Positions 16,379 through 61,934 of a stretch of DNA of 64,000 bases are shown here, in pieces. Source of the DNA: an uncultured Actinomycetes bacterium. Its GTDB lineage: Bacteria > Actinomycetota > Acidimicrobiia > Acidimicrobiales > RAAP-2. The notes under the pieces are model-generated. The model saw only the letters and a program-made list of their open reading frames with translations, was not told the origin of the DNA and did no database searches. A program made the position numbers and the translations under genes. Positions within the stretch are counted from its first letter, which is position 1; each line of letters begins with the position of its first letter. The stretch covers positions 1-64,000 of the forward strand of contig CAIQWC010000017.1 in the NCBI GenBank assembly GCA_903875425.1. Reading direction: 5' to 3'.

Positions 16379-16388
16379 TGCTTGGAAC

Positions 16389-45084: not shown

Positions 45085-45110
45085 CGTATTTGCTCCCGTT
45101 TCTTCTCGAT

Positions 45111-46592: not shown

Positions 46593-46626
46593 GTTTTACT
46601 CCCTAAGGTACGTTACGTTACGAAAA

Positions 46627-47706: not shown

Positions 47707-49313
47707 TGACCAGCACCCTCCGTTTGATCTGAGTTTGAAGTTACGAGCGAAGCCCGCGTTACATTTACTACCGTGAGATCTGCACCCGTGAGTTCTTCAG
47801 CGATGTGGCCGTGTCGAAGTACGAGAACGCGATGACAAACGGCCACTAGTTCATCGACGTCGGCAGAACTAATAACCAGTGCGCTACCTGCAGCCGACGC
47901 TTCACTGAACTGGCGATAGATCTCAGCCTTTGCACCAACATCGACGCCCTGGGTTGGCTCCTCGAAGAGCATCACCTTGGGACCCAAACGCATCCACTTA
48001 CCCATGATGACTTTTTGCTGGTTTCCTCCACTAAAAGAACCCAGCACCGCAGCGATGGCTCCAAGTGGCTGTACCGCCAAACGCTCAAACCAATCGATCG
48101 CATCTGAAGATTCGGCTTTTCTATTGATGCGAGGAAATTTCCAGAATTTATTCAATCCACTAATTGAAATATTCTCTCTAGCGCTAAGACTCATGAGTCC
48201 ACCATGGATTTTTCGATCCGCGGGGACGAACGCGATACCCGCTCTGATGGCAAGGTCGGGTCTATTTGGCTTGATCTCCATACCGTCACAGTTCACGCTG
48301 CCACCGAGCCTCGTCGTGGCACCGAACACTGCTGAGTTAATCAACTCTCGTCCGGACCCTGTAACGCCCGAAAAGCCAAGCACCTCTCCGGGTTTCACAT
48401 CAAAGGAGAGCCCACTCACGAGTGGGGTTTCGAGACCTTCCACTCGCAGCACTGGTTTGACGGTCTTGGCAAACGTAGCTCCGGATGTTCCCTGAACAAC
48501 TTCAAGTACCTCACTACCTACGATGTGCGCCACGAGATCGTCACGCGTCAAATCTGAGGAATCAGTTGTCAGTACTTCGATCCCGCCACGAAGAACCGTC
48601 ACCTTCGAGGGGAGTTCAAACACTTCATCGAAGCGGTGTGTCACGTAAATAACTGCCACACCACTATTAGCAATGCGCTTCACCGTAGTGAGTAACTGCT
48701 CAACTTCCGCAGCTGGCAGCGTCGCCGTTGGCTCATCGAGTACCAGGAGACGAATGGATCCTTCATCGCTCAGTCCGATAGCGCGCGCAATGGCGACACC
48801 GGTTTTTTGGACTGCAGTCAGGTCTCTCACCAGTGTTCGGTGGTTAAGGTCAAGACCGACTTCTGCTAACGCAGCGTTTGTACGTTGCTTTGCCTGGCGG
48901 GCGTCAACCGTCCCAAATCGGACCGGGAATTTATCCGTCATGAACATGTTGTCCAAAATTGAACTATCTTCAACGAGCCCTAAATCTTGATGCACGAAGC
49001 GAGCACCCAACTGATGTGCCCCGTGCGCACTCGCGTCGGGGAGGGGCACTCCGCCGATACGTATCTCTCCACCCTCATCTTTGTGGTGGTACCCCGACAA
49101 GATTTTGATGAAGGTTGATTTGCCTGATCCGTTGCCACCAAGCAACATGCGAATTTCGCCAGGCTCCAAAGTCATGGAGACATCCGATAGAACACGATTC
49201 CCAGAAAATGTCTTGGAAACCGACATGGCGGCAAGCGCCGGCACGACCTCTCCCGGAGGAGAGATCGTGCCGGCTTGCAAACCGTCAGAGTTGGGATTTA
49301 GCCCAGTCGCCAT
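47703..49313 (-). CDS. ABC importer ATP-binding protein, double domain (RbsA-like)
   Basis: 536 residues with two ATPase domains. The first has Walker A G-G-N-G-S-G-K-S-T (about 60) and L-V-L-D-E-P-T-A-T (about 190). The second has a variant Walker A region (G-V-T-G-S-G-R-E-L) and signature F-S-G-G-N-Q-Q-K-V, as usual for sugar-type RbsA/MglA proteins. Its ATG 49313 overlaps the binding-protein gene by 16 bp. The usual substrate class is pentoses and similar small polar molecules; here the context suggests a catabolic substrate or a derivative. Confidence 0.92.
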   Translation of the reverse strand: MATGLNPNSDGLQAGTISPPGEVVPALAAMSVSKTFSGNRVLSDVSMTLEPGEIRMLLGGNGSGKSTFIKILSGYHHKDEGGEIRIGGVPLPDASAHGAHQLGARFVHQDLGLVEDSSILDNMFMTDKFPVRFGTVDARQAKQRTNAALAEVGLDLNHRTLVRDLTAVQKTGVAIARAIGLSDEGSIRLLVLDEPTATLPAAEVEQLLTTVKRIANSGVAVIYVTHRFDEVFELPSKVTVLRGGIEVLTTDSSDLTRDDLVAHIVGSEVLEVVQGTSGATFAKTVKPVLRVEGLETPLVSGLSFDVKPGEVLGFSGVTGSGRELINSAVFGATTRLGGSVNCDGMEIKPNRPDLAIRAGIAFVPADRKIHGGLMSLSARENISISGLNKFWKFPRINRKAESSDAIDWFERLAVQPLGAIAAVLGSFSGGNQQKVIMGKWMRLGPKVMLFEEPTQGVDVGAKAEIYRQFSEASAAGSALVISSADVDELVAVCHRVLVLRHGHIAEELTGADLTVVNVTRASLVTSNSDQTEGAGQ

Positions 49314-50443
49314 AGGTGGCGGTAGCCGGAGATGTAGCCCGCAGGCTTTCCAACAAGGTTGAAGCCAATAGATACGTTGCTGGGGGTAACCAGCTGGTAC
49401 GGCTGACCAAGGTTGCTCTGAGCAGGGTTCATCCCCTCAGAGAGCCGAAGCGCAGCGTCAGCAATCGCCCAACCACCAACGGTGTTGTTGTTCGCCACAA
49501 ACGCCGACTCTTGTCCAGCCTGAAGGGCCGAGAAGTCCGGTGGATTCGGCTGAGCACCGATGATCTTGACGTTGTTGAGTCCAGCGGTATTCAGCGCTGA
49601 ACGCAGGCCACCGGTGAAGGTCAAGTCAGTAGTCATCACGTAGTTGTACGTGGGGTTCTGACGCAACCAAGAAACGATCTGCCCGTTTGTCGTAGCCGAG
49701 TTCGTTGCCCACGTCGTCAGGTCCATCGGCAGGTAGTGGATTTTGCAAGCCGAGCAGTTTGCCCGGAAAGCCTGCCTAAAACCCGTGTACGCCGTAGTCA
49801 AAATCGGGTAGACGTTGACGTCACTGACCAGTACGTTCGCGTGACCGTTTGCGTCCGCAATCGTCCAGTCACCCAACGCTGCACCACCCTGGAGGAATGA
49901 TGAAATGTTGGCACCAATTGGGTAAGCCGGGTATGTGGTCGCCTGCGGTCCGACAACCGAAGGGATGAGCCACACGTGAGCAGCTTTATATGCGGCTACT
50001 ACCGAGCCCCAAACCGCTTCGGTGGCACCGGCGAAGCTAACAGCGAAGGGGTGCTGAGCCAACGCAGTACGAAGCTCGGTTACCAGCGTCGAAGGGTTAG
50101 CAGTGAACCACTCGAGCTCAGAGGTCTGCCAACCAGCAGCCTGCAAACCAGCGATTGCACCGTTACCGATTACCTGCGACTGCTGAATGTCGTCGTAGAT
50201 AAAGATGAACTTGTGGCTCGTTGGCTTGGTCTTAAGCCGAGTCGTCTGCAAGATGTGCGTTGGCACACGCTCAGCTGCTGTTGCAACCGCCCTAGCACGG
50301 GTTACACCCGCAGAACCCGAGCTCGCGCCTGCCGGGATAACAGCGCTAATAGTCAAGGCGGCGGCTGCCACCGTGCCCAACAAGGCTGTCCTGGCCAAAC
50401 GCGACCCGCGCACGCGGCGTGCGGTCTTGTTTGTAATTTCCAT
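49298..50443 (-). CDS. ABC importer substrate-binding protein (RbsB-like)
   Basis: 381 residues from ATG 50443 with GAGGG upstream. A signal sequence (R-R-V-R-G-S-R near residue 10, hydrophobic core to about 40, A-G-A-S end) directs export; the paired Arg residues resemble a Tat signal but lack the full motif. The mature part has the periplasmic-binding-protein-like I pattern, F-I-F-I-Y-D-D-I-Q-Q-S near residue 78 and A-G-A-T-E-A-V-W. Ligand unknown. First gene of the transporter-ALDH-ADH operon, behind the operator-promoter at 50644-50674. Confidence 0.85.
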   Translation of the reverse strand: MEITNKTARRVRGSRLARTALLGTVAAAALTISAVIPAGASSGSAGVTRARAVATAAERVPTHILQTTRLKTKPTSHKFIFIYDDIQQSQVIGNGAIAGLQAAGWQTSELEWFTANPSTLVTELRTALAQHPFAVSFAGATEAVWGSVVAAYKAAHVWLIPSVVGPQATTYPAYPIGANISSFLQGGAALGDWTIADANGHANVLVSDVNVYPILTTAYTGFRQAFRANCSACKIHYLPMDLTTWATNSATTNGQIVSWLRQNPTYNYVMTTDLTFTGGLRSALNTAGLNNVKIIGAQPNPPDFSALQAGQESAFVANNNTVGGWAIADAALRLSEGMNPAQSNLGQPYQLVTPSNVSIGFNLVGKPAGYISGYRHLWRLG

Positions 50444-50643: not shown

Positions 50644-50672
50644 AATATAAACACAAATGTTGATATTGTCAA
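50644..50672 (-). promoter_or_regulatory. Promoter of the importer operon
   Basis: On the minus strand TTGACA (50672-50667), 17-bp spacer, TATATT (50649-50644). Both hexamers are near consensus and the spacing is ideal. The start of transcription would be near 50637, giving a leader of about 195 nt before the binding-protein ATG. The -35 lies inside the operator palindrome. Confidence 0.75.
50648..50663. promoter_or_regulatory. Operator site A (TCAACACATATGTTGA-like)
   Basis: TAAACACAAATGTTGA differs at two of 16 positions from the perfect-type site at 59219-59234. It overlaps the importer -10 and spacer. A second, weaker half (TCAAC at 50669) adjoins it. Confidence 0.6.
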
Positions 50673-50674
50673 CA
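50658..50674. promoter_or_regulatory. Palindrome between TetR and importer promoters
   Basis: TGTTGA-TATTG-TCAACA, a perfect 6-bp inverted repeat with 5-bp spacer. Both divergent -35 hexamers (TTGACA minus, TTGATA plus) lie in it. A dimeric regulator bound here would block both directions. Confidence 0.75.
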
Positions 50675-50688
50675 CAAGCGTCTAAATT
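50660..50688 (+). promoter_or_regulatory. Promoter of the tetR transcript
   Basis: TTGATA (50660-50665), 17-bp spacer, TAAATT (50683-50688). Transcription should start near 50695 and run through a small leader reading frame into tetR. The remainder of this 407-bp intergenic stretch (50444-50850) is AT-rich leader sequence without other genes. Confidence 0.6.
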
Positions 50689-50770
50689 AGTTAGTAAATG
50701 CTAATAGTTGCGAGAAGAGAATCCCAATAGTCCTTGTTAAAAGGCCAAATTGGGGTTTAAGGGGAGGTTG

Positions 50771-50854
50771 ATGATTGTCATGAGGAGCATGAGTAGACCT
50801 TTCAGACGGTGGGTGGAGCTAGCCATGCACGGAACTAACCTCTCAGAGCGATGA
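50771..50854 (+). CDS. Possible 27-codon leader peptide upstream of tetR
   Basis: An ATG at 50771 (others in frame at 50780 and 50789) with GGGGAGG just upstream opens a frame that ends in a TGA overlapping the tetR ATG (ATGA). The peptide is basic and Met/Arg-rich (M-I-V-M-R-S-M-S-R-P-F-R-R-W). The spacing is short for 50771 and long for 50780. Since tetR itself has only CTCTCAGAG upstream, translation may depend on coupling from this frame. Confidence 0.4.
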   Translation: MIVMRSMSRPFRRWVELAMHGTNLSER

Positions 50855-51501
50855 AAGATAAAAGCAGTATCGGAAAACGACGCGCTGCTGCAATCGAAAA
50901 GAATTCAACGGGCTATAACGCTCGCCGAGAAGAGATCATCAATGCAGCTGCCCAGGTATTCAAGGTACGTGGCTACCGAGGAACAAAATTGGCAGACATC
51001 GCCACAGTCCTCGGCATTGATCGCGTTTCGCTCTACTACTACATCAGTTCGAAAGATGAAGTATTCGAAGAGGTAGTGACCGCTGTTGTCATTAGCAATA
51101 CCGAACATATTCTAGAAATCCGCGATTCGTCGATCCCAGTCGAACAAAAACTTCGAGACACCATCGAACACGTGATGAATGCGTACGCAGATAACTACCC
51201 ATTCCTCTACGTTTATCTCCAAGAGAACCTGAGCCACGTGGCGCCCAACCGGATGGAGTGGGCAAGCAAAATGCGAGAGATAAACCGTCGATACACGCAA
51301 GCACTCGTCGAGATCATTCAACAGGGGTACGACTCAGGAACATTCCGTGAAGTTGCGCCGGCTGGCGTTGTTGCTAACGGCGTGCTCGGTATGGTCTCAT
51401 GGACCAACCGGTGGTTCGACCCCAACCGAAGCCAGGTCACGGCTGAGGTAATCGGACGAGGCTATGCCGACATCATCCTTGATGGCTTGAGCAAGACGTA
51501 A
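50851..51501 (+). CDS. TetR-family regulator, probable controller of the catabolic island
   Basis: 216 residues. The N-terminal helix-turn-helix reads A-A-A-Q-V-F-K-V-R-G-Y-R-G-T-K-L-A-D-I-A near residue 32, then L-G-I-D-R-V-S-L-Y-Y-Y-I-S-S-K-D-E-V, the classic TetR form. The C-terminal about 140 residues form the ligand and dimer domain, with a KstR-like layout (M-N-A-Y-A-D-N-Y-P-F-L-Y-V-Y). Such regulators are usually repressors released by an acyl-CoA or substrate. It is divergent from the importer operon, and copies of its candidate operator occur at three places in the island. Confidence 0.88.
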   Translation: MKDKSSIGKRRAAAIEKNSTGYNARREEIINAAAQVFKVRGYRGTKLADIATVLGIDRVSLYYYISSKDEVFEEVVTAVVISNTEHILEIRDSSIPVEQKLRDTIEHVMNAYADNYPFLYVYLQENLSHVAPNRMEWASKMREINRRYTQALVEIIQQGYDSGTFREVAPAGVVANGVLGMVSWTNRWFDPNRSQVTAEVIGRGYADIILDGLSKT

Positions 51502-51513
51502 CCCTTACGGCGT

Positions 51514-52413
51514 ATGGCTATCCATCCTGACGCGCAAGCACTCCTCGATCGATACGAAAGTCTCGGGGCAAAACCGCTTCGAGATCTCGGCGTGATTCGT
51601 GCTCGAGCTGCAGTTGCTACTTCAGTAGAATTTGCGGGCCCAAAAGAAAAGGTCGACAGCATTGTTGATGACGTGATCGAAGCGCACGACCGAGCAATCC
51701 CTATTCGCCGCTACCGCTCAAGTCCTGAACCAAAGGCCACAATTCTCTACCTCCATGGGGGTGGCTGGGTGGCTGGCGATGTAGCCACGGCAGATCCCGC
51801 GTGCCGAGCATTAGCTAATGCCAGTAACTGCGAAGTGGTCTCCGTCGAGTACCGACGCAGTCCTGAAACTCGTTATCCCGGACCGCTCGAGGACGCGGCT
51901 TGTGTCCTGCGTACCATAACGACTTCGTCCAAGGGACCGCTCTTTGTTGCTGGTGATAGCGCCGGTGGTGGCCTCGCCGCAAGTCTTGCGTTCATCGCAC
52001 GCGACGAATCGATTCCTTTGACCGGCCAGATACTCCTCTATCCCGCTATCGATCCACAAACCAGTTTCGGTGACCCTGATGCCGGTCAGACCTCGGGCCT
52101 CTCTCGAGGCGACATGGCATTTTTCTGGAACAACTACCTTGGCGACGCAATGCAAGGACAAGGCTATGCAGCCCCATTGCTCATCGAAGACGTTTCAGGG
52201 CTCGCCCCTGCTCTCATCATCAGCGCGGAGATTGACATTCTCCGCGATGAAAACGAGCGTTACGTAGTCAAGCTCGGCGACGCTGGCTGCTCGGTAATTC
52301 ACGTCATCGCGGCAGGCATGATCCACGGCTTCTTCTGGCAGTTTGGTGCAGTACCCACGGCTCGCCGATGCCTAACGAGCATCAGCGAATTCATAGATAC
52401 CCGGCTCTCCTAG
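51514..52413 (+). CDS. Alpha/beta-hydrolase, HSL-type esterase
   Basis: 299 residues. H-G-G-G-W near residue 86 is the oxyanion motif of the hormone-sensitive lipase family, the nucleophile is in G-D-S-A-G-G near 151, and E-I-D-I-L-R-D-E near 240 and I-H-G-F near 270 supply Asp and His. It could hydrolyse the ester or lactone made by a Baeyer-Villiger enzyme. It starts 12 bp after tetR. The stop interlocks with that of the convergent SDR in a 4-nt CTAG. Confidence 0.88.
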   Translation: MAIHPDAQALLDRYESLGAKPLRDLGVIRARAAVATSVEFAGPKEKVDSIVDDVIEAHDRAIPIRRYRSSPEPKATILYLHGGGWVAGDVATADPACRALANASNCEVVSVEYRRSPETRYPGPLEDAACVLRTITTSSKGPLFVAGDSAGGGLAASLAFIARDESIPLTGQILLYPAIDPQTSFGDPDAGQTSGLSRGDMAFFWNNYLGDAMQGQGYAAPLLIEDVSGLAPALIISAEIDILRDENERYVVKLGDAGCSVIHVIAAGMIHGFFWQFGAVPTARRCLTSISEFIDTRLS

Positions 52414-53174
52414 AGCGTGGTCCAAATCCCTCCATCGACGGGCAAAATTACGCCGGTCACCCATGATGCGCCAGGAGACGTTAGATACACTGCCGCAGCC
52501 TCCATATCTTCGGATTTACCGATACGCCCAAGCGGTGAGGAAGCAACAAACTCTTCTCCCTTTACGGCAAGCGTTGCCGCCATCATCTTCGAGGGGAAGG
52601 GTCCTGGGGCAATCGCATTCACCGTGATGTTGCGCGGCCCTAGTTCCTTTGCCAAAACACGGGTGAGCATATGTACACCCGCTTTCGAAGCGGTGTAGGA
52701 GTAATTGTTAAAATCAGGAACGCGCATCCCATCGATGCTGCCAACGTTAATAATTCGAGCCGGGTTATCCGCTGTGCCTGAGCGCTCGAGTTGCGGCACA
52801 AATGCGCGACTAGTGAAGAACGGGGCTTTCAAGTTCAGGTCGAGGACCTTATCCCAGCCAGCTGCAGGGAACTCTGCCAAGGGGGCTCCCCAAGCCGCTC
52901 CCGCGTTATTAACAAGAATGTGTGCGCCACCAAGCTCTTCAGCTGCCGCGGCAAGGTCGGTCGAAGCCTCCTCTAGGGATAGGTCGGCTGCAACGAATAG
53001 TGCCTCGCCGAATTCGCTAAGTTCAGCAACTGCTTCAGCACCCGCATCGGCTTTGCGGGCAGTCACGATGACTCGCGCTCCTGCTTGGACGAGGCCACGC
53101 GAAATCATTAATCCAATACCTCGTGTGCCACCGGTCACTACTGCAGTCTTCCCTGTGAGATTAAACATATCCAT
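52410..53174 (-). CDS. Short-chain dehydrogenase/reductase 1
   Basis: 254 residues from ATG 53174 (AGGAGAAG upstream). T-G-G-T-R-G-I-G cofactor motif near residue 15, N-N-A-G near 90, Ser in I-N-V-G-S-I-D-G near 145, and the catalytic Y-T-A-S-K. It is the last gene of the crotonase-ligase-SDR-SDR operon. An alcohol/ketone or 3-hydroxyacyl substrate is likely. Confidence 0.88.
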   Translation of the reverse strand: MDMFNLTGKTAVVTGGTRGIGLMISRGLVQAGARVIVTARKADAGAEAVAELSEFGEALFVAADLSLEEASTDLAAAAEELGGAHILVNNAGAAWGAPLAEFPAAGWDKVLDLNLKAPFFTSRAFVPQLERSGTADNPARIINVGSIDGMRVPDFNNYSYTASKAGVHMLTRVLAKELGPRNITVNAIAPGPFPSKMMAATLAVKGEEFVASSPLGRIGKSEDMEAAAVYLTSPGASWVTGVILPVDGGIWTTL

Positions 53175-53199
53175 ATTTCTCTTCTCCTTGTTTTAGGAA

Positions 53200-53949
53200 C
53201 TAATCGATAGGTCCGCCGGAGACATAGAGTGTCTGGCCACTGACAAAACCAGCTCGCTCGTCGGCAAAGAATGAGACAGCATTAGCAATATCTTCTGGTG
53301 TGCCAGCTCGACCGATGGGAATCTTACTGGCCATTTCGCTCACCATTTTTTCGAAATCTATACCGTCACGCTCAGCAACGGCTCGAGTCATATCCGTAAT
53401 CGTAAAGCCAGGAGCGACGGCATTAGCAGTAATACCATGGCGGCCTAATTCGAGCGCGATGGTCTTGGTGAAACCCAAGATGCCAGCCTTGGCGGCTGCG
53501 TAGTTTGCTTGACCGACGAAGCCAACTGCTGCAATGCTCGAGATACTGATGATACGCCCCCACTGGGCACTTCGCATGTAGGGCTGACAAGCCCGCGTCA
53601 TCAGAAATGTGCCACCAAGGTGAACATCGAGAACGAGTTGCCACTCTTCAAGGCTCATGTTCGCCAAGGTTTTATTTCTTAAGATCCCTGCGTTGTTGAC
53701 TAAGACCACAGGATCACCCAACTCGGAAGAAATACGCTCGACAGCAGCAGTAACCGCATCTTCACTAGTGATATTTGCGCCTATGCCAAGAGCACGCTGA
53801 CCTGTGACCTCTATGGCGTTGACAGTCTCGGCACAAGCATCCTCATCAAGATCTACCACCGCTACGTCGTGACCATCACGGGCAAGTCGTAGGGCAATTG
53901 CGGCACCGATACCGCGTGCTCCACCGGTAATGACGGCTACTCTGCTCAT
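53200..53949 (-). CDS. Short-chain dehydrogenase/reductase 2 (FabG-like)
   Basis: 249 residues from ATG 53949, which overlaps the ligase stop (TGATG). T-G-G-A-R-G-I-G motif, N-N-A-G near 86, S-I-S-S-I-A-A-V-G near 137 and Y-A-A-A-K active site near 153; it resembles 3-oxoacyl reductases/3-hydroxyacyl dehydrogenases. Asp in V-V-D-L-D after strand 2 favours NAD over NADP. Likely role: oxidation of a hydroxyl group in the pathway. Confidence 0.9.
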   Translation of the reverse strand: MSRVAVITGGARGIGAAIALRLARDGHDVAVVDLDEDACAETVNAIEVTGQRALGIGANITSEDAVTAAVERISSELGDPVVLVNNAGILRNKTLANMSLEEWQLVLDVHLGGTFLMTRACQPYMRSAQWGRIISISSIAAVGFVGQANYAAAKAGILGFTKTIALELGRHGITANAVAPGFTITDMTRAVAERDGIDFEKMVSEMASKIPIGRAGTPEDIANAVSFFADERAGFVSGQTLYVSGGPID

Positions 53950-55673
53950 CAAAATATCTCTTTCTCGATTTCCTGGCGCGCGCGCTCTGCGAGTAAAAAC
54001 TTTCGTGGCCTACCACTCGGCGTCGTCGGTACATCTTCGATTGCAATCACCCGAACATGCCGCGGTACTTTAAATCGCGCAAGGCGTTCTTCGCAGTGCG
54101 CGATGATCTCGTCAGGATCTACGGCGTAACCTTCACGGGCAACGATATAGGCGACGCCAACCTCTCCAGCTCGAGGATCGGGTAGTGCTACGACGTGAAC
54201 TTGCAAGATCTCGGGTCGAATTGCAATGGCGTCTTCGACTTCTTTGGGCATGACCTGCTCGCCGCCCGTTCGGAACGTTTCCTTTACCCGTCCAACCAAC
54301 ACAAGGTAGCCCTGTTCGTCGAAGTAGCCTAAGTCGCCCGTATGTAACCAACCCTCGGCATCAATCGTTTCCGCAGTTTCCTCTGGCTTCTTGTAGTAAC
54401 CCTTAGTTACGCCCGGTCCGTGACAGACGAGTTCGCCAACCTGACCAGGATCCACGTCAACTCCGCTTCGGGTATCGACAACTCGATAGCGAACAAGGTA
54501 GCCCCCCTCTACGTCTCGTCCAGCAGCACCTACCGTGCGAAGTTTGCCGTTCGTGTTTTCTCGACGTTCGCTGGGATCATCGGGCGCAGTGACGGTACTC
54601 GATCCAGAAGTTTCGCTCATGCCGTATCCGGTTGTGAGCTCGATCTCTCCCAGGAGCGCGAAGATACGATCCCAAATCCCTGGGGGCGAAATACCACCTG
54701 AGGTAATCATCGAAGTAAGTGAGGAGAGATCGTAGGCAGCGGGATCTTTTTCGTAAGCATCGAGGAGGCCAGACGTCATTGTAGGAATAAAGAGCACATC
54801 CTCAGCCCGGTGGCGCGAAATCGTGTTGAGCGTACCAACTGGCCTGAATGTCAATTCCGGGATAATGGCGCCTCCAACAAACGGCACCGCCAACATTCCT
54901 TCGACTAAGCCGTAGACGTGGTACATCGGTAACGAAAACGTTACCTTCCGACCGTCTTGGAACGCCCTGCCGTACACACTGCCGAAGGCAGTACGAAGCA
55001 ACATATCGTGGGTGAGGAGCACACCTTTTGGCTCCCCAGTGGTTCCAGAGGTGTAGAGAATATCTGCAAGCGCTTCTCCACCGATCGTGTCAAGTGGATC
55101 AACGAGTACCGGAGTATCAAGATCGCATAGAGCATCGAACGAGAGTGCTCCCGCAGGAAGCGCCCGCTCTGAGGTCTGAAACATCACTACGTTCTTGAGC
55201 AGCGGGAACTCATCTCCACCACCTTGGCTCTGCCAACCCGAACAAATCGCATCGAGGTCCGCAACGTAGTCCAGGTCTCGAAAGGTATCCATTGTGATCA
55301 AAGCGACCGCATCTGATTGGCGCAGGACGTAAGCCAACTCATGGCGACGATTGAGAAAATTAATCGGAATACATGTAGCGCCCGCACGGGCAATTCCGTA
55401 TTTTGCCGCTACAAACTCGGGATAATTCGCCATCAAAAGACCAACGTGATCCCCGGGTTTCACCCCGAGTTTAATTAACCCTGCCGCTACACGCGTTGAC
55501 CAGTCTGAGATCTGTGTGTACGACCACTCACCTCGGTCAGTGATGACGTAGGGGCGATCGGGGAATGCTTTCGCTGCGGTATCGAGCATCTGATCAATCC
55601 GCTTCGGTACCCACTGAGGGTATCGAGCATCTAGATCGCCCTGTCTCTCAGCTACTGACGCGAGTAAGCCCAC
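53949..55673 (-). CDS. Acyl-CoA synthetase (AMP-forming) with Arg at the catalytic Lys position
   Basis: 574 residues from GTG 55673. Motif A3 (Y-T-S-G-T-T-G-E-P-K-G) near residue 215, A5 (G-Y-G-M-S-E-T-S-G), A7 (G-W-L-H-T-G-D-L-G-Y) and A8 (G-R-V-K-E-T-F-R-T-G-G-E) identify an ANL-family ligase making an acyl-CoA. Near the C-terminus, where most members have G-K, this protein has T-P-S-G-R-P-R-K-F (Arg555; a Lys follows at 558). It is second gene in the operon behind the crotonase, with a 24-bp gap. Confidence 0.88.
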   Translation of the reverse strand: MGLLASVAERQGDLDARYPQWVPKRIDQMLDTAAKAFPDRPYVITDRGEWSYTQISDWSTRVAAGLIKLGVKPGDHVGLLMANYPEFVAAKYGIARAGATCIPINFLNRRHELAYVLRQSDAVALITMDTFRDLDYVADLDAICSGWQSQGGGDEFPLLKNVVMFQTSERALPAGALSFDALCDLDTPVLVDPLDTIGGEALADILYTSGTTGEPKGVLLTHDMLLRTAFGSVYGRAFQDGRKVTFSLPMYHVYGLVEGMLAVPFVGGAIIPELTFRPVGTLNTISRHRAEDVLFIPTMTSGLLDAYEKDPAAYDLSSLTSMITSGGISPPGIWDRIFALLGEIELTTGYGMSETSGSSTVTAPDDPSERRENTNGKLRTVGAAGRDVEGGYLVRYRVVDTRSGVDVDPGQVGELVCHGPGVTKGYYKKPEETAETIDAEGWLHTGDLGYFDEQGYLVLVGRVKETFRTGGEQVMPKEVEDAIAIRPEILQVHVVALPDPRAGEVGVAYIVAREGYAVDPDEIIAHCEERLARFKVPRHVRVIAIEDVPTTPSGRPRKFLLAERARQEIEKEIF

Positions 55674-55697
55674 TGCACTAATCCGCGAGGATGAAGA

Positions 55698-56588
55698 TCA
55701 GCTTTGCTTGGAGGCAAGGTACGCCTCCCAGTACGTGCGGTGGTGCGAGAAGGGTTCGTCACGATCTTCCACGGCTTTGCGAACACCCTCGGTCTCTTGG
55801 ATGCGTTTAAAATCGGCCATCGCAGGACCCGCGATAGCCATGGCATCGGCGTCGTTTGCAGCCGCAATTGCTGATGCAATCCCCATAGCGTCATACCAAC
55901 GATTAGTTGACTCTTTGTGGGAGTAAAGCATCTCAAGCGGTACATGGCTGATGCGATCCGCATAGGCGCGGGCCACCGCCATGACTTCATCAGCAGGAAC
56001 CGCACGGTTAACCAAACCCTGTTCGGCTGCTTCGACGCCAGTCATGGAGTCACCAGTGAACAGCCACTCCTTGGTTCGGCGCATACCGAGGTGAATCGGC
56101 CACATCCCGAATACGTGAATCTCACCCATGCTTCTCGCTTCGGGCTGGCCGAAAGTAGCATCTTCAGCAGCGAAGACCACGTCAAGCACGCCGGCAAGAT
56201 CAAGACCACCAGCTACACAAGCTCCACGGATAACGCCAATCGTTGCTTGACGGATACGCCATAAGCGCATCCAACGCTCACGAGATTCATGAAATTCTCG
56301 TCGCGAAAAAATAGGAGCTCGCCGATGTTCGCGAGTGTCTTCAGGACGAGAGGGCGTTCCCGTCCCCCAGAGGTAACCCCACTCGTTGAGGTCATAGCCG
56401 GTGCAAAAATTCTTCCCGTTGGAGGTGACGATCAAAACACGGGTGTCATCATCGCGATCGAGGTCATCTAGGACGAGATCCATCTCGTCGCGAAGGGCAC
56501 GACAGAGTGCGTTGCCCTTGTTGGGTCGGTTCAGCGTCAGCGTCGCAATCCGATCTTCCTTCTCATAGATAAGGTGCTCAAACTCCAT
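55698..56588 (-). CDS. Enoyl-CoA hydratase/crotonase family, catabolic island
   Basis: 296 residues from ATG 56588 (AGGG upstream); an earlier GTG at 56615 lies in the leader. Oxyanion segments: K-N-F-C-T-G-Y-D-L near residue 63 and A-C-V-A-G-G-L-D near 122. A long insert rich in Arg and Trp (R-R-E-F-H-E-S-R-E-R-W-M-R-L-W-R) separates these and is not seen in the two short crotonases of the window. It may hydrate or open a ring of a pathway CoA ester. First gene of its operon. Confidence 0.85.
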   Translation of the reverse strand: MEFEHLIYEKEDRIATLTLNRPNKGNALCRALRDEMDLVLDDLDRDDDTRVLIVTSNGKNFCTGYDLNEWGYLWGTGTPSRPEDTREHRRAPIFSRREFHESRERWMRLWRIRQATIGVIRGACVAGGLDLAGVLDVVFAAEDATFGQPEARSMGEIHVFGMWPIHLGMRRTKEWLFTGDSMTGVEAAEQGLVNRAVPADEVMAVARAYADRISHVPLEMLYSHKESTNRWYDAMGIASAIAAANDADAMAIAGPAMADFKRIQETEGVRKAVEDRDEPFSHHRTYWEAYLASKQS

Positions 56589-56630
56589 AATCCCTGTCTG
56601 TCCTCTCCTGTCCACTGGACCGCTATTTAA

Positions 56631-56646
56631 TCAACATAGACGTTGA
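56631..56646. promoter_or_regulatory. Operator site B1
   Basis: TCAACATAGACGTTGA: TCAAC and GTTGA arms with a 6-bp spacer, as in the 59219 site. It covers the -10 of the minus-strand promoter. Confidence 0.65.
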
Positions 56647-56661
56647 TAACTTTCTGCGCAA
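56633..56661 (-). promoter_or_regulatory. Promoter of the crotonase-ligase-SDR operon
   Basis: On the minus strand TTGCGC (56661-56656), 17-bp spacer, TATGTT (56638-56633). The transcript would start near 56626 with a leader of about 38 nt to ATG 56588. The -10 lies within operator B1. Confidence 0.5.
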
Positions 56662-56680
56662 GCGTTGACTTCATCAACGC
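56662..56680. promoter_or_regulatory. Second palindrome between crotonase and monooxygenase
   Basis: GCGTTGA-CTTCA-TCAACGC, a perfect 7-bp inverted repeat with 5-bp spacer, the same arm orientation as the palindrome at 50658-50674. It shares its right arm with operator B3, so this region holds three overlapping or adjacent sites. Confidence 0.7.
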
Positions 56681-56689
56681 ATATGTTGA
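56674..56689. promoter_or_regulatory. Operator site B3
   Basis: TCAACGCATATGTTGA differs from the 59219-59234 site at a single position, and the match extends by CAA on the right. It overlaps the -35 of the monooxygenase promoter. Confidence 0.75.
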
Positions 56690-56714
56690 CAATATGAAAA
56701 TAATTGGTTACCTT
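56686..56714 (+). promoter_or_regulatory. Promoter of the monooxygenase gene, likely leaderless
   Basis: TTGACA (56686-56691), 17-bp spacer, TACCTT (56709-56714), then 7 nt to ATG 56722. The expected start of transcription is at or next to the A of the ATG, so the mRNA would lack a leader. No Shine-Dalgarno precedes the ATG, consistent with this. Confidence 0.6.
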
Positions 56715-56721
56715 GATAAAT

Positions 56722-58332
56722 ATGACGATGAGTAGCCCCCTACGCGATCCCGACGTTCTTGTGATTGGAGCCGGTTTTGCTGGCCTCAAAGCGATTGTCA
56801 GCATGCGAGCAAGCGGCCACAGCGTCACGGCCCTTGAAGCCGGTGATGGGGTGGGTGGTGTCTGGTTCTGGAACCGATATCCGGGCGCGCGCTGTGATGT
56901 TGAAAGTTACGACTACTCCTACCGTTTCTCGGAGGAGCTTGAACAAGAATGGCGCTGGAGCGAGCGCTACGCCACGCAACCGGAGATTCTCTCCTACATC
57001 AACCACGTGGCGGATCGTTTCGACCTACGAGACGACATTATTTTCAACCAGAAGATGACTGATGCGGTGTTCAACGAAGCGGTGAAGCGTTGGGAAGTCA
57101 CCACTGCTGACGGTTCACAATTTTCAGGGCGCTACCTCATTATGGCAACGGGTAGCTTGTCGGCAGCCAAAGACGTTCTCCTTCCCGGCCAGGACGAGTT
57201 TGCTGGTGAGATTTACTGGTCGTCGCGCTGGCCCAAGGAGGGCGTGGACCTCACCGCCAAACGAGTCGGAATCATTGGCACCGGTTCCTCTGGCATGCAA
57301 ATGGTTCCCGTAGTTGCTCAGCTATGCGAGCACCTCACTGTCTTCCAGCGCACCCCCAACTACTCCATTCCTGCAGCCAATGGCCCCGTCAGCGACGAAG
57401 AAGATGCGGCGGTAAAAGCCAGCTATCGGTCTCGGCGTGAGGCGGCAAGAAACTCCCCATCTGGTCTCAATTTTCTAGCCTCAGGTATCTCGGCGCTAGA
57501 GGTGAGTGATGAAGAACGCGAGGCCGAGTTTGAAAAGGCTTGGGCTCGATACGGTTTTGGCTTCGTCTTGTGTTTTCGTGATCTGATCACCGATGAGAAA
57601 GCCAATACCTATGCTTCTGATTTCATCCGACGCAAAATCGGAGAACAGGTTAGTGACCCCGAGGTTCGTCGGCACATCGTTCCTGCCAACTTCCCTTTTG
57701 GGACCAAACGGCCTTCGGTTGATGCGAACTACTACCCAACCTTCAATCGGCCTAACGTTACCTTGGCTGATTTACGCGATGAGCCAATCGATTACCTCGA
57801 TAAGACGGGACTTGCCACAACGTCCAAGCACTATGACTTGGATGTCTTAGTTTTCGCTACGGGCTTCGACGCCCTGACTGGCTCCTTCCTCAAGCCCAAT
57901 ATTTTTGGGCGTGGCGGCAGAGCACTTCGCGATCACTGGGCCAACGGACCCCTAACCTACCTCGGCTTGTGCTCATCTGGCTTTCCCAATATGTTCATTA
58001 TCGCAGGCCCTGGTAGCCCCTCGCTGTTGAGCAACGTGATGATGTCCATCGAGGAGGGCATCGATTGGCTAACCGAGATGATCATGTTTTCTGAATCCTC
58101 CGGCTACGCAGCACTTGAGCCCACCGTCGACGCTGAAACGAAGTGGGTTCAGCACGTTAATGAAAAGGCAGACGAGACCTTGTATCCAAAGGTCCCCTCC
58201 TACTACAACGGCGATAACGTTCCGGGCAAACCACGGGTCTTTATGCCCTACACGGGTGGCGTGCGGGGATACCGTCGCATTCTCGAGCGTGTAGCGGCTA
58301 ACGGCTACGAAGGCATGGTGTTCTCAAAGTGA
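56722..58332 (+). CDS. Flavin-containing Baeyer-Villiger-type monooxygenase (PAMO/CHMO-like) with altered fingerprint
   Basis: 536 residues from ATG 56722 (TTG 56704 and ATG 56728 are alternatives). FAD motif V-I-G-A-G-F-A-G-L near residue 13; N-R-Y-P-G-A-R-C-D-V-E-S-Y and the long C-terminal part (A-G-P-G-S-P-S, H-V-N-E-x-A-D-E-T-L-Y-P, N-V-P-G-K-P-R-V-F-M) follow phenylacetone monooxygenase closely. NADPH motif G-T-G-S-S-G near 190. Catalytic Arg region T-K-R near 330 is kept. The family fingerprint F-x-G-x3-H-x3-W is F160...W166...W170 here, so His is replaced by Trp. It would convert a ketone to an ester or lactone, or do a related flavin oxygenation. Confidence 0.85.
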   Translation: MTMSSPLRDPDVLVIGAGFAGLKAIVSMRASGHSVTALEAGDGVGGVWFWNRYPGARCDVESYDYSYRFSEELEQEWRWSERYATQPEILSYINHVADRFDLRDDIIFNQKMTDAVFNEAVKRWEVTTADGSQFSGRYLIMATGSLSAAKDVLLPGQDEFAGEIYWSSRWPKEGVDLTAKRVGIIGTGSSGMQMVPVVAQLCEHLTVFQRTPNYSIPAANGPVSDEEDAAVKASYRSRREAARNSPSGLNFLASGISALEVSDEEREAEFEKAWARYGFGFVLCFRDLITDEKANTYASDFIRRKIGEQVSDPEVRRHIVPANFPFGTKRPSVDANYYPTFNRPNVTLADLRDEPIDYLDKTGLATTSKHYDLDVLVFATGFDALTGSFLKPNIFGRGGRALRDHWANGPLTYLGLCSSGFPNMFIIAGPGSPSLLSNVMMSIEEGIDWLTEMIMFSESSGYAALEPTVDAETKWVQHVNEKADETLYPKVPSYYNGDNVPGKPRVFMPYTGGVRGYRRILERVAANGYEGMVFSK

Positions 58333-59204
58333 GCCACCCCACAGCACAGCAGAAGATTGCGATTATTGGTGCTGGCACGATGGGGGTGGGTATTGCCTAC
58401 GTTTTTGCTGCCGCCAATTGGGAAACCTACGTCGTCGAACCAGACGACGTACGCACAAACGCCGCGAGGGTAACGATCGCTAAGGCCGCAGAAAATGGCT
58501 ACGACCGTGGCCGACTCAACGCTGTGGATGTAGCCCGTCTCAACCACGACATCGTCTTCGTCAAAGCCCCCATTGAAGCACCCCTTGGCATAGATCTGGT
58601 TATCGAGACCGTTCCTGAGCAATTGGATCTCAAGCGAGAGGTACTACGTGCTGCTGAAGCACTCGAGCCTGCGATCCTCGCAAGTAATACCTCGTCGCTC
58701 TCCATTGATGAACTCGCCAAGGGTCTCGCTCGGCCAGACCGTTTTATCGGCATGCACTTTTTTAATCCCGTGTGGTCATTTAGCCTGGTCGAAATCGTGC
58801 GAGGTAGCTCCACCGTTGATGCCTGCTTGAACGCGGCACTCGAGGTAGTCGAATCCATTGGCAAACAACCTGCCGTCGTGAAGGACTCACCAGGATTTGC
58901 CACGAGCCGCCTTGACCTCATCGCCGCCCTTGAAGCGATTCGAATGGTGGAGCAAGGCGTTGGCAGCCCCGAAGATATTGACCGAGCCATTCAACTGGCC
59001 TACCGACACCCGGTTGGTCCCCTTAAGTTAAGCGACATCGTGGGTCTTGATGTTCGCCTCGATATCGCACGACGACTCAGCGAGTCACTCGGCGATCGAT
59101 TCTCACCTCCCCAGCTCCTCATTGAGATGGTCGCACAAGGAAAATTGGGAGAGAAATCAGGGCAGGGTTTCTACGATTGGCCAAGCAGCGTTGACGAACC
59201 CTAG
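58329..59204 (+). CDS. 3-Hydroxyacyl-CoA dehydrogenase
   Basis: 291 residues from GTG 58329, overlapping the monooxygenase stop (GTGA). NAD motif I-G-A-G-T-M-G-V-G near residue 13; E-T-V-P-E near 93, S-N-T-S-S near 120, H-F-F-N-P near 143 (catalytic His) and the D-S-P-G-F end of the N-domain are canonical. The C-terminal part fits the HAD dimer domain. It oxidises 3-hydroxyacyl-CoA in beta-oxidation. Confidence 0.94.
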   Translation: MSHPTAQQKIAIIGAGTMGVGIAYVFAAANWETYVVEPDDVRTNAARVTIAKAAENGYDRGRLNAVDVARLNHDIVFVKAPIEAPLGIDLVIETVPEQLDLKREVLRAAEALEPAILASNTSSLSIDELAKGLARPDRFIGMHFFNPVWSFSLVEIVRGSSTVDACLNAALEVVESIGKQPAVVKDSPGFATSRLDLIAALEAIRMVEQGVGSPEDIDRAIQLAYRHPVGPLKLSDIVGLDVRLDIARRLSESLGDRFSPPQLLIEMVAQGKLGEKSGQGFYDWPSSVDEP

Positions 59205-59219
59205 GCTCCGTCCTACAAT
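59191..59219 (+). promoter_or_regulatory. Promoter of the acyl-CoA dehydrogenase gene, likely leaderless
   Basis: TTGACG (59191-59196, inside the end of the preceding gene), 17-bp spacer, TACAAT (59214-59219), then 8 nt to ATG 59228. Start of transcription at the ATG is expected. No ribosome-binding site precedes the start. Confidence 0.65.
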
Positions 59220-59234
59220 CAACACATATGTTGA
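59219..59234. promoter_or_regulatory. Operator site C, covering the start codon
   Basis: TCAACACATATGTTGA: 6-bp arms TCAACA/TGTTGA with a 4-bp centre. It overlaps the last base of the -10 and the ATG of the acyl-CoA dehydrogenase gene. Bound regulator would block RNA polymerase directly. It is the best example of the shared operator. Confidence 0.8.
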
Positions 59235-60424
59235 CAACTAAAGGAACCCCCTCACCCATCTCGGAACTAAACGTCGATGACACGCCTGAGCGCGCAGAAT
59301 TACGGGCAACCGTTTCGAAGTTGGCTCGAAGTTACGGCCGCGCCTACCTCAAGGAGGTAGTCAAGGAACAGCGCAAACCAAGCGAACTCTGGAATGATCT
59401 CGGCAAGGCGGGCTTCCTCGGCGTCCACCTTCCCGAAGAATTCGGAGGCGGTGGTGGGGGCATGACTGACCTAGCCATTGTTATCGAAGAGAACGCGGCG
59501 GCTGGTATCCCCTTATTCATGATCGTTATCTCGCCGTCGATCGCCGGTCCTATCCTTGCTGCACACGGCACGACTGAGCAAAAGCAGAACTGGCTTCCTG
59601 GCATTGCCTCGGGAGAACTCAAAGTTGCCTTCTCCATCACCGAACCTGACGCTGGGCTCAATACGCACAACATCACGACAACGGCGACGCCACGTCCCGG
59701 TGGAGGGTGGAGTTTAAATGGCCAAAAGTACTGGACCTCAGGGGCCGATGAAGCTGATGCGCTCTTGGTTGTTGCCCGCAGCGACGAACCTGATGAACGC
59801 GGTCGCACTCGGCTCTCACTCTTTCTCGTCCCTACCGATACTCCCGGTATCGTCATGCAAGAAATCGACTCGGCATTGGCACTTCCCGAGAAGCAGTTCG
59901 TGATCTTCTACGACGATGTCGAAGTGCTCGAGCACAACATCATCGGTACCGAGCATGAAGGGCTACGACAAGTATTCGCTGGGCTCAACCCTGAGCGTAT
60001 TGCTGCAGCAGCGGTGGCTAACGGCATCGGCCGCTACGCAATTGAAGCGGGTGCGAACTACGCGGCGAACCGCCAGGTCTGGAGCACACCCATTGGTGCC
60101 CACCAAGGCGTGGCCCACCCCTTGGCTCGCTCCCACATAGAGGTACAAAGCTCACGCCTCCTTGCCGCCCACGCCGCCCAGCTCTTTGATGCAGGGCTCG
60201 ATGCTGGTGAGGCTTCAAACATGGCTAAATTCTGTGCGGGCCAAGCCGCCACCAACGCCCTGGACCGTGCAATTCAAGTACATGGTGGGAACGGACTCTC
60301 CAATGAGTTCGGCCTTTCTGACCTTTGGTTCGTAGCGAGAATGTTCCGCACGGCTCCCGTAAGTGAAGAGATGATCCTCAACCACGTGGCGCAGCACAGC
60401 TTGGGACTACCAAAGAGTTACTGA
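59228..60424 (+). CDS. Acyl-CoA dehydrogenase
   Basis: 398 residues. L-G-K-A-G-F-L-G-V-H-L-P-E-E-F-G-G-G-G-G near residue 53, the F-S-I-T-E-P-D-A-G flavin motif near 137, K-Y-W-T-S-G near 170, and Q-V-H-G-G-N-G near 355 are family landmarks. It introduces the alpha-beta double bond into an acyl-CoA. The start codon sits inside operator C. The next gene starts 1 bp after its stop. Confidence 0.94.
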   Translation: MLTTKGTPSPISELNVDDTPERAELRATVSKLARSYGRAYLKEVVKEQRKPSELWNDLGKAGFLGVHLPEEFGGGGGGMTDLAIVIEENAAAGIPLFMIVISPSIAGPILAAHGTTEQKQNWLPGIASGELKVAFSITEPDAGLNTHNITTTATPRPGGGWSLNGQKYWTSGADEADALLVVARSDEPDERGRTRLSLFLVPTDTPGIVMQEIDSALALPEKQFVIFYDDVEVLEHNIIGTEHEGLRQVFAGLNPERIAAAAVANGIGRYAIEAGANYAANRQVWSTPIGAHQGVAHPLARSHIEVQSSRLLAAHAAQLFDAGLDAGEASNMAKFCAGQAATNALDRAIQVHGGNGLSNEFGLSDLWFVARMFRTAPVSEEMILNHVAQHSLGLPKSY

Positions 60425-60425
60425 G

Positions 60426-61934
60426 ATGTCTAAGTCTGAGTCAAAATTTTCTCTTGCCAACGTCGTCCGACGATTTGCCAGTGAGACCCCCGAAAGCCCC
60501 GCACTCTCAGACGCCGAGAGAACGATTACCTTCTCGGAGCTTGATGCGAACACCTCACGAATCGCACAGTTCTTAGCCGCACAGGGCGTGACGAGTGGTT
60601 CGCGCGTTGCTGTTATGGCTAGAAACTCTCTCCTGCATTTTGAGACCCTGTTAGCCATCTCAAAACTGGGTGCTGTAACCGCCGGCATAAACTTCCGACT
60701 CTCGGCACACGAACTCGCAACATTGCTCGACGATGCCGATCCCATCGTACTCATCGTCGATCAAGAACGTGCATCTCTCGTGCCCAGTGGTGTTCACTAC
60801 CTCATCTTCGATGACGCCTTCGATGCCGACGTGGCTACCTTCGAAGCTATCGACCCGATGGGTGAATTCGATGGTGATATCGCCCTCCAGCTCTACAGTT
60901 CGGGTACTACGGGCCTCCCCAAGGGCACGATGTTGACCAACGCCAACTTGGCTTGGACACCCAAGATGGGCGGGGAGGTTTACCAGATGAGCTCGGCTTC
61001 GGTCAATCTCCTCACCTCTCCGCTCTTTCACATTGGCGGTACCGGATATGGACTTACGACCTTTGGTAACGGCGGCCACACCGTCGTTGCACCTAACATG
61101 GAGCCAGCGACGCTGCTCGATCTCATCGAAGAATACAGGATCACCCATGCCTTCTGGGTCCCTACGGTGATCCGTTCGGTGCTCCAGGCCTTGGAATCGC
61201 ACGCGGTCAACCTTGGAAGTCTTGAACTCGTTGCCTATGGCGCAGCTCCCATTGATGATGCAACCTTACTCAATGCCATCGACCTCTTGGGGTGTCAATT
61301 CCTCGGTGTTTACGGCATGACCGAAACAGCGGGAAGCGTAACTGCCTTGCTTCCCGGCGACCACGACCCGGGCGGCCCGCGAAGTCACCTTCTTCGGTCG
61401 GTGGGCAAAGCCCTGCCTTGGCACCGCGTCTTGATCTTTAACCCAGAAACTGGCCTTGCTTGCACCACCGAGGAGGTTGGTGAAATTTGGATCCAGAGTG
61501 ACCAGAACATGGCCGGCTACTGGAAACAGCCGGAGCTCACGACGCAAGCCCTTGATGTTGACGGATGGTTCCGAACCGGAGATGCGGGCTGGCTCGATGA
61601 GAACGGATACCTTTTTATGCATGACCGAATTAAGGACATCATCATCACCGGCGGTGAGAACGTCTACCCGGTCGAAGTCGAACGCGTCCTCAATACTCAC
61701 CCCCTCGTCAGTCAGGCCATCGTCATTGGCGTCCCCGACGAGCGATGGGGTGAGACGGTAAAGGCAGTGGTCATCGCAACGCAGGCCGTAGAGGCTACTG
61801 ACCTCATCGACTACTGCCGAGAATACCTAGCCCACTACAAGTGCCCCACGACTGTTGCCTTCGTCGATTCATTTCCCCTTAACGCAGCGGGGAAAATACT
61901 GAAGCGCGAGTTACGCGAACGCTACGGTGCCTGA
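60426..61934 (+). CDS. Acyl-CoA synthetase (AMP-forming)
   Basis: 502 residues. Motifs: Y-S-S-G-T-T-G-L-P-K-G near 155, Y-G-M-T-E-T near 297, G-W-F-R-T-G-D-A-G-W near 380, and the canonical C-terminal A-A-G-K-I-L-K-R with catalytic Lys near 492. It activates a free acid, perhaps the diacid or hydroxyacid formed in the pathway. The two ligases of the island differ in length and in this Lys. Confidence 0.93.
   Translation: MSKSESKFSLANVVRRFASETPESPALSDAERTITFSELDANTSRIAQFLAAQGVTSGSRVAVMARNSLLHFETLLAISKLGAVTAGINFRLSAHELATLLDDADPIVLIVDQERASLVPSGVHYLIFDDAFDADVATFEAIDPMGEFDGDIALQLYSSGTTGLPKGTMLTNANLAWTPKMGGEVYQMSSASVNLLTSPLFHIGGTGYGLTTFGNGGHTVVAPNMEPATLLDLIEEYRITHAFWVPTVIRSVLQALESHAVNLGSLELVAYGAAPIDDATLLNAIDLLGCQFLGVYGMTETAGSVTALLPGDHDPGGPRSHLLRSVGKALPWHRVLIFNPETGLACTTEEVGEIWIQSDQNMAGYWKQPELTTQALDVDGWFRTGDAGWLDENGYLFMHDRIKDIIITGGENVYPVEVERVLNTHPLVSQAIVIGVPDERWGETVKAVVIATQAVEATDLIDYCREYLAHYKCPTTVAFVDSFPLNAAGKILKRELRERYGA

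What the first reader, a model, noticed from the sequence alone, without database searches (positions are those of the whole stretch)
50644..59234. A shared palindrome marks one TetR regulon across the island
Near-identical sites occur at three separate control regions: TCAACACATATGTTGA at 59219, TCAACGCATATGTTGA at 56674 (one difference), TAAACACAAATGTTGA at 50648 (two differences), and the looser TCAACATAGACGTTGA at 56631. All lie on or beside a -35/-10 pair. The only regulator gene in the island (TetR, 50851) is beside one of the sites. The genes controlled fit one catabolic route. I see no such palindrome in the other control regions of the window that I read.
Basis: partly seen in the sequence, partly recalled or inferred. 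Interest (0 to 1): 0.85.

Follow-up and report, generated by a model that had tools for sequence, protein, structure and literature searches.

The report
TetR operator palindrome marking catabolic regulon
A repeated DNA palindrome in this actinobacterial genome is very probably the docking site of a neighbouring TetR repressor that controls a whole ketone-degradation gene cluster, and the same repressor-and-palindrome pair recurs in distant bacteria; the kind of switch is ordinary, but this one seems undescribed.

Summary
The palindromes are real and not chance. TCAAC-N6-GTTGA occurs exactly at 4 places in the 1.61-Mb genome, 3 of them in this island. A blind count of six-base gapped palindromes in 13 loci around related TetR genes, window and genus mate left out, ranks GTCAAC-N6-GTTGAC first; only spacer 6 stands out (27, at most 4 elsewhere). 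Of 70 TetR genes, 10 of 13 close and 1 of 57 distant relatives have a site nearby. Sites found later by motif alone precede BVMO (twice), thiolase, aldehyde dehydrogenase and etfBA genes. Best reading: an autoregulated local TetR repressor on gTCAACR-N4-YGTTGAc, controlling up to five transcripts of a Baeyer-Villiger / acyl-CoA route and its importer; effector probably a CoA thioester (inferred). No binding or expression data. Against: three close TetR genes lack a near site; two distant TetR loci have sites 1.8 kb off; substrate unknown. New member of a known kind: an apparently undescribed TetR subfamily and motif.

The parts
50648..50663 (.). operator-like palindrome TAAACACAAATGTTGA between SBP and tetR
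   Evidence: 17.3 bits
50669..50684 (.). degenerate second palindrome TCAACACAAGCGTCTA, 21 bp from the first; better in the genus mate (16.1 bits there, 10.0 here)
   Evidence: 15.9 bits
56631..56646 (.). palindrome TCAACATAGACGTTGA before ECH
   Evidence: 22.8 bits
56674..56689 (.). palindrome TCAACGCATATGTTGA before BVMO
   Evidence: 24.7 bits
59219..59234 (.). palindrome TCAACACATATGTTGA over -10 end and start codon of ACAD
   Evidence: 24.9 bits
50644..50672 (-). promoter-like TTGACA-N17-TATATT reading to the SBP operon
   Evidence: (11 of 12), kept in genus mate
50660..50688 (+). promoter-like TTGATA-N17-TAAATT reading to tetR
   Evidence: 9 of 12
56686..56714 (+). possible promoter TTGACA-N17-TACCTT of BVMO, ATG at 56722 (own reading, not in the tool's list)
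56633..56661 (-). possible promoter TTGCGC-N17-TATGTT of ECH (own reading, weak)
59191..59219 (+). promoter-like TTGACG-N17-TACAAT of ACAD (TATAAT in genus mate)
   Evidence: 10 of 12
50851..51501 (+). TetR regulator, 216 aa
51514..52413 (+). alpha/beta hydrolase (HSL-like)
43948..50443 (-). SBP, ABC ATPase, permease, aldehyde dehydrogenase, zinc alcohol dehydrogenase; presumed transcript
52410..56588 (-). ECH, acyl-CoA synthetase ACS1, SDR2, SDR1; presumed transcript
56722..58332 (+). type I Baeyer-Villiger monooxygenase
58329..59204 (+). 3-hydroxyacyl-CoA dehydrogenase
59228..62727 (+). acyl-CoA dehydrogenase, acyl-CoA synthetase ACS2, SnoaL-like protein; presumed transcript

Best explanation
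The palindrome gTCAACR-N4-YGTTGAc is the operator of the TetR protein encoded at 50851-51501. A TetR homodimer binds one 16-18-bp palindrome. Sites lie over or between promoter boxes of up to five transcripts: SBP-ABC-ALDH-ADH (left), tetR-hydrolase (right, autoregulation), ECH-ACS1-SDR2-SDR1 (left), BVMO-HCDH (right) and ACAD-ACS2-SnoaL (right), so the bound repressor blocks RNA polymerase; at ACAD the site runs from the -10 box over the start codon of a probably leaderless mRNA. Pairs 21 bp (50648/50669) and 43 bp (56631/56674) apart, about 2 and 4 helical turns, would favour binding on one face of the helix. A catabolic intermediate, most likely a CoA thioester made by ACS1 or ACS2, releases the repressor. 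The gene set fits import of a ketone or secondary alcohol, Baeyer-Villiger oxidation to an ester, hydrolysis, oxidation to an acid, CoA activation and beta-oxidation. Shown: the sites, their conservation, their promoter-proximal place, their co-distribution with this TetR clade. Inferred: binding, repression, effector, substrate, transcript boundaries.
For: Sites real and clustered. Blind count puts GTCAAC-N6-GTTGAC first of 61,440 half-site/spacer combinations in 13 loci without window and genus mate; 0 exact in 134 kb of 29 control loci. Only spacer 6 enriched: 27, at most 4 at any other spacer 0-18, 0 for the reversed half-sites. Matrix from 27 outside sites ranks the island sites 1-5 in the window; three of them (24.9, 24.7, 22.8 bits) exceed the best of 20 Markov sequences of 64 kb (17.7). 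Arms kept in the genus mate. 10 of 13 against 1 of 57 TetR genes have a site nearby (Fisher 8e-9; 8 of 11 without window and genus mate, 2e-7); the 13 form one branch, support 100/98. In 7 genomes 14 of 38 core-perfect sites lie within 20 kb of the TetR gene, 0.57 expected. On 4 annotated plasmid loci 17 of 17 core-perfect sites lie within 190 bp upstream of an annotated start, 16 of 17 between genes. Of 6 further sites fetched, 5 stand before catabolic genes: BVMO in Luminiphilus and Klenkia, thiolase in Klenkia, aldehyde dehydrogenase in Conexibacter, etfBA in the genome of L039. The 6 other own-genome places with one mismatch in the 12 fixed bases lie inside open frames. Fold neighbours PfmR, KstR2, FadR, AibR.
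Against: No binding or expression data. The TetR nearest outside the genus (L039, 58%) has no site near it; its genome has 2 core-perfect sites, neither near the TetR gene, and no close homologue of the island's ECH (best 36% over part), though one site precedes etfBA. L079 and one of two Sphingopyxis TetR genes lack a site within the scanned stretch. Two loci with TetR of only 30-31% identity (L081, L082) hold 5 core-perfect sites 1.8-8.1 kb from their TetR, one inside an open frame; the nearest lie just outside the 1.5 kb scanned, so the motif may not be exclusive to the clade. 50648 (17.3), 50565 (15.9) and 50669 (10.0 bits) lie within the range of best random scores (9.1-17.7) and rest on conservation. 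Loose matches are in excess genome-wide (142 against 52). Three other TetR_N places in the genome are not excluded as binders.
Confidence: 0.87

Rival explanations
1. The sites belong to a different regulator (one of the other TetR genes of the genome or a global factor), and the island TetR merely lies beside them.
For: The genome has 3 other TetR_N places over the cut-off; two loci with distant TetR genes hold core-perfect sites; L039 shows a close TetR without a near site.
Against: The motif tracks this TetR clade (10 of 13 against 1 of 57) and clusters within 20 kb of it in 5 of 7 genomes (14 of 38 sites); no other TetR in the own genome matched the island TetR at E 0.001.
Confidence: 0.07
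2. The palindromes are promoter parts only: TTGACA-type -35 boxes with chance symmetry, in an A+T-rich intergenic stretch.
For: The right arm TGTTGACA contains a -35 box at 56674 and its mirror at 50669; loose matches are common.
Against: At 59219 and 56631 the site is not at a -35 box; the left arm is kept as well as the right in the genus mate; spacer 6 alone is enriched in 13 loci.
Confidence: 0.04
3. The TetR acts mainly as an activator, or as repressor and activator, rather than as a simple repressor.
For: Multiple sites at helical spacing and the 50565 site away from the promoter boxes would allow it; some TetR proteins activate (FasR is named an activator).
Against: Sites at ACAD, ECH and the divergent pair cover -10, spacer or start point, the usual layout for repression.
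Confidence: 0.1

Closest known systems
PfmR (TTHB023), Thermus thermophilus, PDB 3vpr
   Same: Best PDB sequence hit (5.3e-28) and best fold match (Z 18.9, rmsd 3.0, 182 aligned); TetR protein with a 16-bp palindrome at several promoters (PMC7022988, passages seen)
   Different: Its consensus, tested around CTGACCGATCGGTCAG, differs; 29% identity in the fold alignment; the targets named there are fatty acid biosynthesis genes
KstR2, Mycobacterium tuberculosis, PDB 4w97/4w1u
   Same: Same fold (Z 18.7); repressor of a CoA-thioester catabolic regulon with several promoters (recalled)
   Different: Steroid-ring regulon; its motif (recalled, about AnCAAGnnCTTGnT) differs
SACE_5754, Saccharopolyspora erythraea (PMC6346578)
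   Same: TetR-like repressor whose footprinted site holds TCAACA-n2-TGTTGA, the same half-sites; one target encodes a FAD-binding monooxygenase (passages seen)
   Different: Gap between TCAAC and GTTGA is 4, not 6; kinship to this TetR not tested
pdc progesterone cluster, Caenibius tardaugens (PMC12239570)
   Same: Type I BVMO beside a TetR gene that the authors suggest may repress it (abstract, passages and section 7 seen)
   Different: Carries LuxR and luciferase-like genes and not the acyl-CoA set; no operator described in what I saw; its TetR was not compared here

Membership tests
TetR family of transcriptional regulators | N-terminal TetR_N helix-turn-helix | tested here: met
   PF00440 54.4 bits, cut-off 24
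TetR family of transcriptional regulators | all-helical TetR fold over the chain | tested here: met
   AlphaFold2 pLDDT 81.3; best matches TetR regulators with Z up to 18.9
TetR family of transcriptional regulators | dimer binding a palindromic operator | not testable with these tools
   palindromes present and conserved; binding not measurable here
Named TetR subfamilies of NCBIfam | curated cut-off of a subfamily model | tested here: not met
   19 models match, best 45.2 bits against cut-off 150; none reaches its cut-off
PfmR | operator like CTGACCGATCGGTCAG | tested here: not met
   consensus GTCAAC-N6-GTTGAC against PMC7022988
Acyl-CoA-responsive TetR repressors (KstR2, FadR, AibR) | release by an acyl-CoA | not testable with these tools
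   only fold likeness and two acyl-CoA synthetases in the predicted regulon
Type I Baeyer-Villiger monooxygenase | full-length homology to PAMO/STMO/CHMO | tested here: met
   phmmer 8.4e-180 to PAMO, 7.4e-175 to STMO
Type I Baeyer-Villiger monooxygenase | fingerprint FxGxxxHxxxW (recalled) with its His | tested here: not met
   window FAGEIYWSSRWP and genus mate FEGKIYWSSRWP have Trp at the His place; 5 of 6 other BVMO-like proteins looked at have His, in the sixth (L047) the pattern was not found
pdc progesterone cluster | BVMO + TetR + LuxR + luciferase-like gene together | tested here: not met
   no LuxR or luciferase-like gene among the 20 ORFs scanned at 39.7-63.9 kb; a luciferase-like gene lies about 40 kb away at 10387-11448

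The most novel reading that the evidence does not exclude
A portable, undescribed TetR-operator-BVMO module: one TetR subfamily with a near-invariant operator (gTCAACR-N4-YGTTGAc, in some genomes doubled with a 6-bp offset) has travelled with a Baeyer-Villiger / acyl-CoA catabolic set between Actinomycetota, Gammaproteobacteria and alphaproteobacterial plasmids while its DNA code stayed unchanged, so that the motif alone finds parts of such pathways (BVMO, thiolase, aldehyde dehydrogenase, electron-transfer flavoprotein) in new genomes.
Probability: 0.5. Interest if true: 0.5.

Novelty: new member of a known kind. Interest (0 to 1): 0.42.

Why it matters
It gives a testable operator and regulon for a TetR subfamily that reaches no NCBIfam cut-off and that my literature searches in an open-access library did not reveal. 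The motif can serve as a search handle for Baeyer-Villiger pathway genes that lie apart, as in Luminiphilus and Klenkia, and the TetR with its operator could be tried as a sensor for ketone-derived metabolites. The type of control itself is ordinary.

Tried and rejected
Steroid catabolism: the BVMO resembles steroid monooxygenase, but among the 40 window ORFs that I gave to Pfam (not all ORFs) I recognised no steroid-ring set. I did not search the genome for one, so this stays open. The progesterone pdc cluster was considered and not accepted as the same system; a TetR query from the Sphingopyxis plasmid returned no Novosphingobium record, so the TetR beside the BVMO of plasmid pNL2 was not compared.

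Genome-wide regulon: with up to 2 mismatches to the 12 fixed bases the own genome has 142 places (reversed control 52) and the tool listed 50 of them; I followed only the 9 with one mismatch (3 in the island, 6 inside open frames). The excess of loose matches is unexplained (word bias of coding DNA is my guess). A regulon member elsewhere in the genome is not excluded.

Further sites: of the 38 core-perfect sites in 7 genomes I fetched 6 outside the first loci because they lay near the TetR, in pairs, or in the genome of L039; the sixth (L114:3747) falls at the edge of open frames and could not be read. The remaining far sites were not examined, except C43 of the own genome.

L039 was followed to its whole genome: no site near its TetR and no close ECH, but one exact 18-base site 39 bp before the mechanical start of an etfB-etfA pair.

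Rows dropped before counts: in the 70-TetR comparison I left out duplicate loci (L005-L007, L035, L049-L054), L080 (cut near-copy of L079), L001-L004 and L037 (not TetR loci) and L085-L092; some of the 57 distant loci are shortened by contig ends. The tree used 35 of the 70, and on it the site label needs 5 changes, not 1. The control set (134 kb) is shorter than the test set (282 kb), so about 4 exact sites would be expected there at equal density. A phylum search (396 genomes) gave one TetR beyond window and genus mate at E 1e-40, so the clade is thinly sampled. The 20 papers listed (of 853) were judged by their titles and abstracts to be unrelated and not read; of the 69 papers, 15 were listed and none read apart from passages named here. 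PMC6534649 (TetR of a desulfurization operon) was looked at in passages only and names no palindrome.
Full report
Observation. Allowing three mismatches to TCAACRYATATGTTGA, the 64-kb window contains these four places and no others (8 strand matches; shuffles mean 0.97, largest 6). In the whole genome (1.61 Mb, 97.7% complete) TCAAC-N6-GTTGA occurs exactly 4 times, 3 of them in this island; the fourth is a hairpin-like repeat where convergent open frames meet. With one mismatch in GTCAAC-N6-GTTGAC there are 9 places: 3 in the island between genes, 6 elsewhere, all 6 inside open frames. Looser matches are in general excess and say nothing.

Surroundings. To the left of the TetR gene run a substrate-binding protein, an ABC ATPase, a permease, an aldehyde and an alcohol dehydrogenase; to the right the TetR (PF00440 and PF17932 over cut-off), an alpha/beta hydrolase, two short-chain dehydrogenases, an acyl-CoA synthetase, a crotonase, a type I Baeyer-Villiger monooxygenase (BVMO), a 3-hydroxyacyl-CoA dehydrogenase, an acyl-CoA dehydrogenase, a second acyl-CoA synthetase and a SnoaL-like protein (below its Pfam cut-off). 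The BVMO is of the phenylacetone/steroid monooxygenase group (8.4e-180 to PAMO). No further regulator was found among the 20 ORFs scanned there.

Genus mate.

Independent recovery of the motif. Related TetR genes were collected from genomes and plasmids. Counting all perfect six-base gapped palindromes with spacer 0-14 in 13 such loci, window and genus mate left out, GTCAAC-N6-GTTGAC came first (6 loci, 9 copies), followed by its shifted forms; 29 control loci of distant TetR genes had no exact copy. Over spacers 0-18 the TCAAC/GTTGA pair occurs 27 times at spacer 6 and at most 4 times elsewhere; those 4, at spacer 12, can be read as doubled sites with a 6-bp offset. Caveat: 5 of the 27 sites come from two loci with only 30-31%-identical TetR genes, one of them inside an open frame.

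Co-distribution. Of 13 TetR genes at 35% identity or more, 10 have a site within 1.5 kb upstream to about 2.1 kb downstream of the gene start; of 57 below, 1. The two loci L081 and L082 have sites 1.8 kb off, just outside that stretch. The 13 form one branch (support 100/98), with sites in its actinobacterial, gammaproteobacterial and alphaproteobacterial members. In 7 genomes 14 of 38 core-perfect sites lie within 20 kb of the TetR gene, 0.57 expected. On the four annotated plasmid loci all 17 core-perfect sites lie within 190 bp upstream of an annotated start, among them BVMO-type, acyl-CoA dehydrogenase, aldehyde dehydrogenase, transporter, luciferase-like monooxygenase and TonB receptor genes.

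Out-of-sample check. Genome-wide scans for the motif alone led to sites outside the loci first fetched; I looked at 6. In Luminiphilus one lies 116 bp before a BVMO frame (54% identity); in Klenkia, on another contig, one lies 46 bp before a BVMO frame (55%) and one 46 bp before a thiolase frame; in Conexibacter one lies 58 bp before an aldehyde dehydrogenase (43%); in the genome of L039 one exact 18-base site lies 39 bp before an etfB-etfA pair, the electron acceptor of acyl-CoA dehydrogenases; the sixth, in Conexibacter, could not be read. Starts are those of mechanical open frames.

Failures. L039, whose TetR is 58% identical, has no site near it and no close island ECH in its genome; L079 and one of two Sphingopyxis TetR genes also lack a near site. 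Either these have other targets or the linkage is looser than the clade picture suggests.

Mechanism. Promoter-like boxes lie at the sites: TTGACA-N17-TATATT reading left and TTGATA-N17-TAAATT reading right share the 50648/50669 pair; TTGACG-N17-TACAAT (TATAAT in the genus mate) ends at 59219 and the ATG at 59228 follows after 8 bases, so the ACAD message is probably leaderless and the operator covers -10 end, start point and start codon. The BVMO promoter TTGACA-N17-TACCTT with ATG 7 bases on is my reading; the tool lists TTGACT-N17-GACAAT there instead. For ECH, TTGCGC-N17-TATGTT across 56631 is kept in the genus mate but weak. Steric repression follows from this layout. The predicted structure is a TetR fold nearest to PfmR, KstR2 and relatives; FadR with stearoyl-CoA and AibR with isovaleryl-CoA are among the matches, so a CoA thioester is the likeliest effector. 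The pathway (ketone to ester to acid to CoA ester to beta-oxidation) is inferred from families only.

Known or new. The regulator reaches no NCBIfam subfamily cut-off. In the open-access library I found no paper on this TetR or this spaced motif. The nearest in DNA code is SACE_5754 with the same half-sites at another spacing; the nearest in gene neighbourhood is the progesterone pdc cluster. It is a new member of a known kind.

Noticed in passing
window 56722-58332; L038:14822-16471: The BVMO fingerprint FxGxxxHxxxW (recalled) reads FAGEIYWSSRWP: Trp in place of the His, also in the genus mate; 5 of 6 other BVMO-like proteins looked at keep His and in one the pattern was not found. The enzyme may be altered in activity.
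   Followed up: partly
window 59191-59236 and 56686-56724: ACAD and probably BVMO look leaderless, with the ATG 7-8 bases after the -10 box; the ACAD start codon lies inside the operator.
   Followed up: partly
window 55698-56588: The crotonase ECH is unusually conserved: 98% to the genus mate (other island genes 69-94%) and 86% to Klenkia, where ACS1, BVMO and TetR show 50-58%.
   Followed up: no
L036:8014, L040:8988, L041:9846, L048:15934: TCAAC-N12-GTTGA, readable as two overlapping sites 6 bp apart, as if two dimers bound together.
   Followed up: partly
L045:4821-5474 and 15974-16651: The Sphingopyxis FD7 plasmid pSFD01 carries two TetR genes of this clade in one catabolic cluster, next to protocatechuate 4,5-cleavage genes.
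   Followed up: no
L081:7233 and 8626; L082:6448 and 7849: Loci with TetR genes only 30-31% identical to the window's still hold core-perfect sites 1.8-3.2 kb away; the motif may reach beyond the clade.
   Followed up: no
whole genome G000: GTCAAC-N6-GTTGAC with up to 2 mismatches has 142 places against 52 for the reversed pattern; the excess outside the island is unexplained.
   Followed up: no
L117:2822 (genome of L039): An exact 18-base site stands 39 bp before the mechanical start of an electron-transfer flavoprotein beta-alpha pair, far from the TetR gene.
   Followed up: partly
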